Shown here piece after piece: positions 45,976 to 47,169 of a stretch of 64,000 nucleotides of DNA. This DNA is from Rhabdophis nuchalis (Eukaryota > Chordata > Lepidosauria > Squamata > Natricidae), in the NCBI GenBank assembly GCA_039707465.1, contig CM077647.1, positions 43,151,110-43,215,109 of the forward strand, written 5' to 3'. The position numbers were made by a program, and so were the translations under genes. Position 1 is the first letter of the stretch, and each line of letters begins with the position of its first letter. Below the pieces are notes generated by a model that saw nothing but the letters and a program-made list of their open reading frames with translations, did not search any database and was not told the DNA's origin.

Positions 45976-46372
45976 GACATGGCAACAGGTCAGCCAATGG
46001 TAAGGTGACCAGATGTCCCGCTTTTGAACAATTTGTCCTCATCCTGCAGCATTTTAAAAAAGTCCTGATTTTTGGATTTTTGCCTGGGGCGGGCACTCTG
46101 CATGCACTTAGAGGCGACCTGCAGCAAGGACAGTGGCATGGGATGTGGTGAGGAAGTAATGTCCGGAGCGGGCTGGCGGGCAGGCGGAAGGCGAGGGCTG
46201 GAGAGGGAGGAGCGAGCGAGCAGCCAGGCAAACTAACAAACATCACACAAGAAAATAAATGCAAACCATTTCCATACCATGCCAAGAAAACTGCCAAAAT
46301 CTGTTAATGGATGTAACTGAATTCAAGGTAATTTTTCCCATTTTTTGAAAATCTTACATATTTGTGTAAAAT

Positions 46373-46738
46373 GGGTCCAGGGATGCTGGGCAGGGAGGCT
46401 GCAGTGGGGGCTCATCCCAGGTGCCCATGGCAGGACGGGCGGGTGGGCGACGGTGGGGCTCCTGACTGGCCGCATTCAGCACATTGCAGCAGCAGCAGTT
46501 CATGGCCATGCGGGCTCCAGCTGCAGCCCCTCCATGCACAGCTATCCTCCTCTGGCTGCACGGTGGGGCTGCAGCTGCAGCCCATGCGGCCCTGAACTTT
46601 GCACTGCCGCTGCTGTTGCCGCAATGCGCTGAGAGCAACCGGCCAGGAACCCCACCGCCACCCGCCCGCCCGTCCTGCCATGGGCGCCTGGGATGAGACC
46701 CTGCCGCTGCTTCCCTGTCCAGCACCCACGGACTCTGC
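46373..46738. repeat. 360-bp imperfect palindrome inside the hAT-like element
   Basis: The left arm (gctgggcagggaggctgcag, ctcatcccaggtgcccatgg, caggacgggcgggtgg) is mirrored by the right arm (ccacccgcccgcccgtcctg, ccatgggcgcctgggatgag, ccctgtccagcaccc). Symmetry continues through the middle (ctgcagcccctccatgcaca versus gtgcacggtggggctgcag region) to a loop near 46548. Divergence between arms is about one base in eight. Arg/Ala/Pro-rich ORFs on both strands follow from the symmetry. Confidence 0.9.
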
Positions 46739-46858
46739 ACTCCTAGGCGCCACTCTCAGCTTGCCATCAGCAGGGGAAGTGGCGGGGGCAGTGCCAGGGC
46801 TCGTCCGGCCAACTTCGGCAGTGGTGTGGAGGAGGAGAAGATCGGGTCAGTGGTGGTG

Positions 46859-46975
46859 GACTGCGTGGTGTGCAGGGACAAGTTGAGTGGGAAACACTAC
46901 GGCATCTTCACCTGCGAGGGCTGCAAGAGCTTCTTCAAGCGCAGCATCCGCCGCAACCTCAGCTACACCTGCAGA
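46859..46975 (+). pseudogene. NR2F (COUP-TF/EAR2)-type first zinc finger, captured fragment
   Basis: Thirty-nine codons encode DCVVCRDKLSGKHYGIFTC, then EGCKSFFKRSIRRNLSYTCR. This is zinc finger I of a nuclear-receptor DNA-binding domain: four zinc Cys (C-V-V-C and C-E-G-C) and the P-box CEGCKSF that reads the half-site. SIRRNLSYTCR and the CVVC start point to NR2F, nearest NR2F6. Two family-invariant positions are changed (CGDK to CRDK, and SSG to LSG). Finger II and the ligand-binding domain are absent: after TCR the frame runs into G-rich DNA and stops at 47060. About 30 codons upstream are open but not recognisable. The fragment lies inside the hAT-like element at 46001-47157, so it is a transposed copy, not the host gene. 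It could still act as promoter-like or exon-donor DNA. Confidence 0.85.
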
Positions 46976-47169
46976 TGCCCCGCTTGGGGGGGGGAGGGAG
47001 GGGGTGAGCCTGCATGGCCCCCCACCAGATGCCCTCTGGCCAGCAAGGGAAGTGGGCGGTGAGGCAGCCTCTGTGACGGCTGCAGGGCCAGGAAAGGCTG
47101 CTGCCCCCCCCCCGTCAATGGTGTCCCGCATTACCAATGTTAAAATCTGTCACCTTAGCCAATGGGGAC

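What the first reader, a model, noticed from the sequence alone, without database searches (positions are those of the whole stretch)
46001..47157. hAT-like transposon carrying a fragment of an NR2F-type nuclear receptor (Pack-type capture)
Seen: identical 8-bp flanks (gccaatgg), related terminal inverted repeats (taaggtgac...), and between them a GC-rich segment that encodes zinc finger I of a nuclear receptor with CVVC/CEGC cysteines and P-box CEGCKSF. Known: hAT elements make 8-bp TSDs; NR2F receptors are deeply conserved, GC-rich genes. Inferred: the element captured an exon part of NR2F6 or a close paralogue and moved it. A transposon that carries a DNA-binding-domain exon is raw material for new fusion factors or promoter donation. 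I know of no description of this element, but cannot search.
Basis: partly seen in the sequence, partly recalled or inferred. Interest (0 to 1): 0.88.

Follow-up and report, generated by a model that had tools for sequence, protein, structure and literature searches.

The report
Transposon family carrying NR2F6 gene start
A hAT-like DNA transposon in this unnamed vertebrate genome contains the start region of the genome's own nuclear-receptor gene NR2F6, and hundreds of other places show the same junction of transposon end and gene, likely because one ancient capture was copied around the genome, which would make it far larger than the few-copy gene-capturing transposons of the animal survey I read.

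Summary
The element at 46001-47157 has an exact 8-bp target duplication and TAAGGTGAC termini. Its interior is mostly built from about 1.08 kb of the host's own NR2F6 gene: some 0.6 kb upstream of the start codon, exon 1, splice donor and the start of intron 1, partly inverted, plus one foreign insert of about 150 bp. The intact gene lies at C1:13.8 Mb. The window copy belongs to a family: 2,413 places match the 26-base left terminus (control 0), 605 match the terminus/NR2F6 junction (control 10), and 19 of 28 sampled copies carry NR2F6 sequence (reversed control 0 of 28). Shared outer breakpoints suggest one capture followed by amplification. The window copy lacks the start codon and the splice donor, so it is probably inert; copies L042 and L043 keep both motifs but have lesions in the finger. 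Copies with the same ends and other interiors suggest a repeat capturer, but no second donor gene was found, nor the transposase. Known kind (Pack-TIR), exceptional scale for an animal.

The parts
45993..46000 (.). left target-site duplication gccaatgg
   Evidence: 8/8 identical to the right one
46001..46088 (+). hAT-like left arm with terminus TAAGGTGACCAGATGTCCCG
   Evidence: 26-base terminus at 2,413 places genome-wide, control 0
46088..46230 (+). NR2F6 upstream region (L039 6161-6295), likely promoter-proximal or 5' leader
   Evidence: 77% over 143 columns, E 2e-27
46229..46377 (+). AT-rich second inserted segment, 97% identical to C1:304597440-304597588
   Evidence: three places in the genome (window, L042, C1:304.6 Mb)
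46373..46550 (-). inverted copy of NR2F6 upstream region (L039 6498-6315)
   Evidence: 74%, E 9e-32
46558..46821 (+). NR2F6 upstream region, direct (L039 6328-6586)
   Evidence: 80%, E 6e-66
46822..46974 (+). 3' part of NR2F6 exon 1 with zinc finger I
   Evidence: PF00105 E 8.5e-17; 90% to the gene exon
46975..47113 (+). start of NR2F6 intron 1; splice donor GT changed to AT
47114..47157 (+). hAT-like right arm ending in CTGTCACCTTA
47158..47165 (.). right target-site duplication gccaatgg

Best explanation
The element at 46001-47157 is a hAT-like transposon without a transposase frame whose interior consists mostly of the 5' end of the host's own NR2F6 gene, likely captured once by template switching during DNA repair and then likely moved in trans by a hAT transposase into hundreds of copies. 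Shown by calls: the termini, the target duplications, the source gene, the shared outer breakpoints and the counts. Inferred: that there was one capture, that template switching made it, and that a transposase from elsewhere moved it. Most likely the cargo is a passenger: copies have lost CpGs, deleted internally and drifted, and no selection on the receptor part is shown. The window copy is probably a dead insertion. The main possible effect, untested, is that copies spread a CpG-rich gene-start sequence, often as a head-to-head palindrome.
For: NR2F6 alignment in ordered blocks that include upstream DNA, exon and intron. Intact gene with finger II and ligand-binding domain; no terminus within 4 edits in its two 10-kb stretches. 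Of 18 copies mapped (window and 17 best matches, a biased set), 14 begin the NR2F6 part at L039 6135-6177 and 16 end it at 7199-7213. Eight positions where the gene differs from every comparable copy among window, L042, L043 and L044. 2,413 termini, control 0; 605 junctions, control 10; NR2F6 sequence in 19 of 28 sampled copies, reversed control 0 of 28. Target duplications: 18 of 30 tabulated copies 8/8 and 23 of 30 at least 7/8, against 0 and 4 of 870 mismatched pairings. Sources switch over 2 bp (CA) and 5 bp (GGGTC) of shared sequence at the insert's edges, and the right junction lies in a C-tract present in the gene and in same-ended copies without NR2F6.
Against: No autonomous partner was found: of 862 hAT dimerisation-domain candidates 150 were scored and none was inspected for these ends. 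9 of 28 sampled copies showed no NR2F6 match. Two control matches of 27 bp to another GC-rich receptor locus show that short GC-rich hits can be chance. Among copies the exon differs less (2.9-6.2% outside CpG) than the upstream part (7.6-10.3%) or the intron (9.4-21.8%), which simple drift does not explain unless alignment in low-complexity DNA inflates the latter. The eight shared differences could also be changes in the gene after capture.
Confidence: 0.88

Rival explanations
1. The family is a serial capturer: the same hAT-like ends picked up several unrelated gene starts, NR2F6 being the most successful cargo.
For: Copies with the same ends carry other interiors: L074-type (the 38 best places besides L075 and L087 themselves, 86-100%), L075-type (39 of 40 listed rows, 93-100%), L087-type (40 scored of 50 candidates). 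The insert at 46229-46377 is a second foreign segment. L087-type interiors hold a frame with a donor-like end, recognised in 45 matches (three of these matches are weak).
Against: No donor gene was found for any interior but NR2F6; searches were capped at 40 scored places, so donors may be hidden. L075-type may be original transposon sequence.
Confidence: 0.35
2. NR2F6-carrying copies were captured several times independently.
For: Interiors are very diverse in order and orientation.
Against: Outer breakpoints agree in 14 (left) and 16 (right) of 18 copies and junction letters agree.
Confidence: 0.07
3. Direction reversed: a transposon landed at the NR2F6 locus and supplied its 5' region.
For: The shared sequence includes non-coding DNA.
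Against: Exon 1 encodes finger I of a conserved receptor with NR2F6 relatives in mammals, birds and a snake; no terminus is found at the gene.
Confidence: 0.02
4. The receptor cargo is used by the host, as a promoter or as an exon (domestication).
For: CpG o/e of 25 copies is above that of flanks (medians 0.58 and 0.335); L042 and L043 keep the donor GT; L044 has a 138-codon frame through finger I; nominal dN/dS 0.42 (window) and 0.16 (L044 finger).
Against: The CpG excess is expected in a decaying GC-rich insert; dN/dS rests on few changes, CpG decay and the gene's own branch; four of the five exon-bearing copies are damaged in or near the finger or its donor; no matching chimeric protein among the 120 listed of 135.
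Confidence: 0.08
5. Host exon or pseudogene with coincidental flanking 8-mers.
For: None beyond the exon sequence itself.
Against: Upstream and intron DNA are included, so it is no retrocopy; no finger II in the window; the terminus recurs 2,413 times.
Confidence: 0.01

Closest known systems
Animal Pack-TIRs, above all Pack-hATs (Tan et al. 2021, PMC8277862; abstract, sections 7, 9 and 14 and found passages seen)
   Same: Host gene DNA between the ends of a TIR transposon, with target duplications; 208 of their 370 cases are hAT; the frog case hAT-N8_XT carries 291 bp derived from a 5' UTR; template switching is proposed for multicopy cases.
   Different: They report only four multicopy cases, the frog example with three insertions; here hundreds of copies. 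Their filters (90% identity, length ratio 80-120%, unique best source) would probably miss such an old, rearranged family.
Plant Pack-TYPE transposons including Pack-hAT (PMC8903248; start of abstract in a listing and found passages seen)
   Same: Gene pieces carried by non-autonomous TIR elements; [quoted passage not shown]
   Different: Plants; here a vertebrate, with one gene start in hundreds of copies.
Ssk-FB4 of Drosophila (in PMC8277862, section 9)
   Same: Upstream region plus gene captured and moved several times.
   Different: Four copies, nearly the whole gene, polymorphic and evidence of protein; here an old decayed family with gene start only.
MITEs of the hAT superfamily (recalled; listing of PMC3517528 only)
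   Same: Short, non-autonomous, many copies, 8-bp target duplications, palindromic interiors.
   Different: Interior here is traceable to a host gene.

Membership tests
hAT superfamily | 8-bp target-site duplications (recalled) | tested here: met
   18 of 30 tabulated copies 8/8, 23 of 30 at least 7/8; mismatched pairings 0 and 4 of 870
hAT superfamily | short terminal inverted repeats | tested here: met
   TAAGGTGAC at both ends, inverted
hAT superfamily | mobilisation by a hAT transposase / related autonomous element | tested here: inconclusive
   no frame of 150 codons in the element; partner not identified among hAT domain matches, whose flanks could not be read
Pack-TIR / Pack-TYPE | non-transposon host sequence between the ends of one TIR element | tested here: met
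   NR2F6 blocks between both arms
Pack-TIR / Pack-TYPE | identifiable parental locus not itself flanked by the transposon | tested here: met
   intact gene at C1:13.8 Mb, no terminus within 4 edits in 20 kb
Pack-TIR / Pack-TYPE | strict published filters: at least 90% identity and length ratio 80-120% | tested here: not met
   block identities 74-80% by BLAST, rearranged; these are detection filters for young cases, not the definition
NR2F nuclear receptor gene | both zinc fingers and a ligand-binding domain in place | tested here: not met
   finger I only, profile 2-40 of 70; the fragment is not a receptor gene

The most novel reading that the evidence does not exclude
A vertebrate hAT family works as a standing vehicle for gene starts: fixed ends of about 90 and 50 bp with interchangeable, often CpG-rich interiors between them. 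Its best cargo, the NR2F6 start region with splice donor, spread to more than a thousand copies and seeded the genome with pieces of one regulator's gene start, many as two-way palindromes.
Probability: 0.3. Interest if true: 0.88.

Novelty: new variant of a known kind. Interest (0 to 1): 0.72.

Why it matters
In the animal survey I read (PMC8277862), gene-capturing TIR transposons were nearly always single copies, and most were argued to form without transposition. A vertebrate family with hundreds of copies of one gene's start region shows that capture can be followed by strong amplification. It also offers many insertions of one known CpG-rich region, at different sites and with different deletions: a natural experiment on whether moved gene-start DNA starts transcription or attracts methylation. 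It is also a warning for annotation: exon 1 of NR2F6 has five mobile look-alikes among the ten matches.

Tried and rejected
Host exon or retrocopy: rejected. Low-complexity GC artefact: rejected for the family as a whole (reversed NR2F6 0 of 28; two other receptor loci 2 of 28, by 27-bp matches, and 0 of 28), though the shortest matches (37-38 bp in L077, L101 and L103) are the least secure. Selection on the exon: inconclusive. Donor of the L087-type interior: not found (a PDB search of one frame found nothing). Autonomous partner: not found. Assignment to a hAT subgroup from the target site: the central two bases are A/T in 21 of 23, TA in 8 of 23; no assignment made. Chimeric proteins in other species: searched once, none recognised in the 120 listed of 135. 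Literature: nine searches listed no paper that by title or opening abstract describes an NR2F6-carrying transposon; 'pack-hat' occurred in 2 of the 15 rows shown. The library lacks most subscription journals and Repbase/Dfam could not be consulted, so the element may already have a name there. No dating was attempted; divergences are given instead.

Full report
What is there. An NR2F6 gene shows that it is a vertebrate; that it may be a squamate reptile is my guess and untested. At 46001-47157 lies a 1,157-bp element with an exact 8-bp target duplication and TAAGGTGAC ends. No stop-to-stop frame of 150 codons or more lies in it, so it has no transposase of its own.

The source. A search for the zf-C4 family found finger I of the window and, on C1, a complete gene: finger I at 13835921-13836037, finger II at 13844151-13844240. 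Its exon 1 reads 97 codons from ATG to the splice donor; exon 2 and a ligand-binding piece follow. The ligand-binding piece matches COUP-TF2 best (3cjw, E 1.9e-59), a paralogue with a solved structure. The named proteins nearest to exons 1+2 are NR2F6, among them a hamster NR2F6 (76% over the whole query) and a snake NR2F6-like protein (93% over 69%). The window's exon piece is 91% identical to this gene, 82% and 80% to the next loci on C17 and C2. So the source is NR2F6.

The anatomy. Against the gene (L039) the element reads: left arm; L039 6161-6295; an AT-rich insert; L039 6498-6315 inverted; L039 6328-6586 direct; L039 6879-7203; right arm. The start codon (L039 6748) falls in the missing stretch. 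Copy L042 keeps most of the interval, with the ATG region and the donor, but has a 20-bp gap in finger I and smaller gaps. The insert has three places in the genome: the window, L042 and C1:304597442-304597585, 96-97% alike. The last lies in an 8-kb stretch with no such terminus within 4 edits, so it is probably the source of a second capture. At its edges the element changes source over 2 bp (CA) and 5 bp (GGGTC) of shared sequence, as template switching would leave.

One capture. I mapped the window and 17 copies taken from the best matches, a biased set. All 18 contain NR2F6 sequence. In 14 of 18 the direct NR2F6 part begins at L039 6135-6177; the others are L043 (6636), L044 (disrupted), L049 (right part only) and L050 (6243). 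In 16 of 18 it ends at 7199-7213; L052 and L055 go from 6433 and 6423 straight to the right arm. At the left junction, 14 of the 16 such copies shown read TTTTTG|CCTGGGG or a close variant; the script missed it in L042, where one search shows it, and L043 lacks it. On the right, most have a C-tract before GTCAATGG. Same-ended copies L075, L100 and L104 share another sequence after TTTTTG, perhaps the original arm. At eight positions the gene differs from all comparable copies among window, L042, L043 and L044; this fits one founder, though changes in the gene after capture would look the same. The simplest reading is one capture of about L039 6125-7204, then deletion, inversion and amplification.

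How many. The 26-base left end occurs 2,413 times with up to two mismatches, the reversed pattern 0 times. The 22-base junction of left arm and NR2F6 occurs 605 times, control 10; the window copy itself has 5 mismatches to that pattern and is not counted. Of the 30 junctions listed on C1 below 253 Mb, 13 lie 70-90 bases from one of the 100 exact termini listed (my comparison of the two lists). Of those 100 termini, all on C1, I took every fifth (20) and 8 of a second series of 20. NR2F6 sequence was found at E 1e-6 in 19 of 28; reversed NR2F6 in 0 of 28; two other receptor loci in 2 (27-bp matches) and 0. Scaling 19/28 to 2,413 gives about 1,640 copies, binomial range 1,150-2,030. The sample covers one chromosome and exact termini, so this is an estimate; the firmer figure is the roughly 600 junctions.

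Moved as a transposon. Thirty copies with both flanks in hand were tabulated: 18 with 8/8 and 23 with at least 7/8 identical 8-mers. Pairing flanks of different copies gave 0 of 870 at 8/8 and 4 at 7/8. Copies lacking an end, and most of those fetched later, are not in the table.

State of the copies. The gene region has 81% G+C and CpG o/e 0.88; the window interior 62% and 0.44; 25 copies have medians of 70% and 0.58, the flanks of 14 of them 40.5% and 0.335. CpG positions differ from the gene in 27-41%, mostly as C>T or G>A, the mark of past methylation (established knowledge). Outside CpG the exon differs from the gene by 3.4-4.6% in window, L042, L043 and L044, and by 13.4% in L045; the insert differs from its C1 source by 5.2-5.3%. 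Copies also differ less from each other in the exon than upstream or in the intron; few changes and low-complexity alignment leave this open. The window's donor is AT instead of GT; L042 and L043 keep GT but have gaps in finger I. L044 keeps a 138-codon frame through finger I, with an insertion near the donor. Nothing here shows use.

Other cargo. Same-ended copies with other interiors exist: L074-type, L075-type, L087-type, and two of 28 sampled copies (L078, L102) that matched no reference. The L073-type interior occurs together with NR2F6 pieces in 4 of its 5 sampled copies. L087-type interiors carry a frame MRRLQLLPLWKIAWSA... ending at a donor-like CTGCAG|GTA; it resembles a mitochondrial leader to my eye, but no donor gene was found. 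Serial capture is a lead, not a result.

Known context. Tan et al. 2021 (PMC8277862; parts seen: abstract, sections 7, 9, 14 and found passages) report 370 Pack-TIRs in 100 animal genomes, 208 on hAT, only four multicopy, and propose fork stalling with template switching for multicopy ones. Plant Pack-TYPE clusters exceed one hundred elements in maize (PMC8903248, passages). The present family is of this kind; its scale in a vertebrate, the regulator cargo and the internal palindromes set it apart.

Verdict.

Noticed in passing
L074, L075, L087 (C1:24416579-, 31056866-, 202858694-): Copies with the same hAT-like ends but interiors unrelated to NR2F6, each itself present in many places.
   Followed up: partly
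L095 1400-1876, L097, L098, L099: L087-type interior with a frame MRRLQLLPLWKIAWSA... and a donor-like end, as if taken from the first exon of a gene; donor not found.
   Followed up: partly
L044 (C1:167331500-167334500, minus strand): A copy with an open frame of 138 codons through NR2F6 finger I, running into the transposon's right arm.
   Followed up: partly
L041 3939-4091 (C1:304597438-304597590): Single-place AT-rich sequence 96-97% identical to the insert in the window copy and L042; what it is was not determined.
   Followed up: partly
window 48237-48343: A near-perfect palindrome (gatgtccaaacttgggaactttaagacttgtgg...) that looks like another small inverted-repeat element (seen).
   Followed up: no
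window 13046-15142 (+); 53791-54862 (-); 61308-62603 (-): Reverse transcriptase frames (RVT_1), probably retrotransposons; the first with an ALKBH8_N match next to it.
   Followed up: no
window 26527-27443 and 63395-63989: Two tandem arrays of similar 43-61 bp units rich in GTAG.
   Followed up: no
G000, genome-wide: 862 candidates for the hAT dimerisation domain; most of the 150 scored ones lie at 56-57 bits with frames near 167 codons, suggesting one young abundant hAT family.
   Followed up: no
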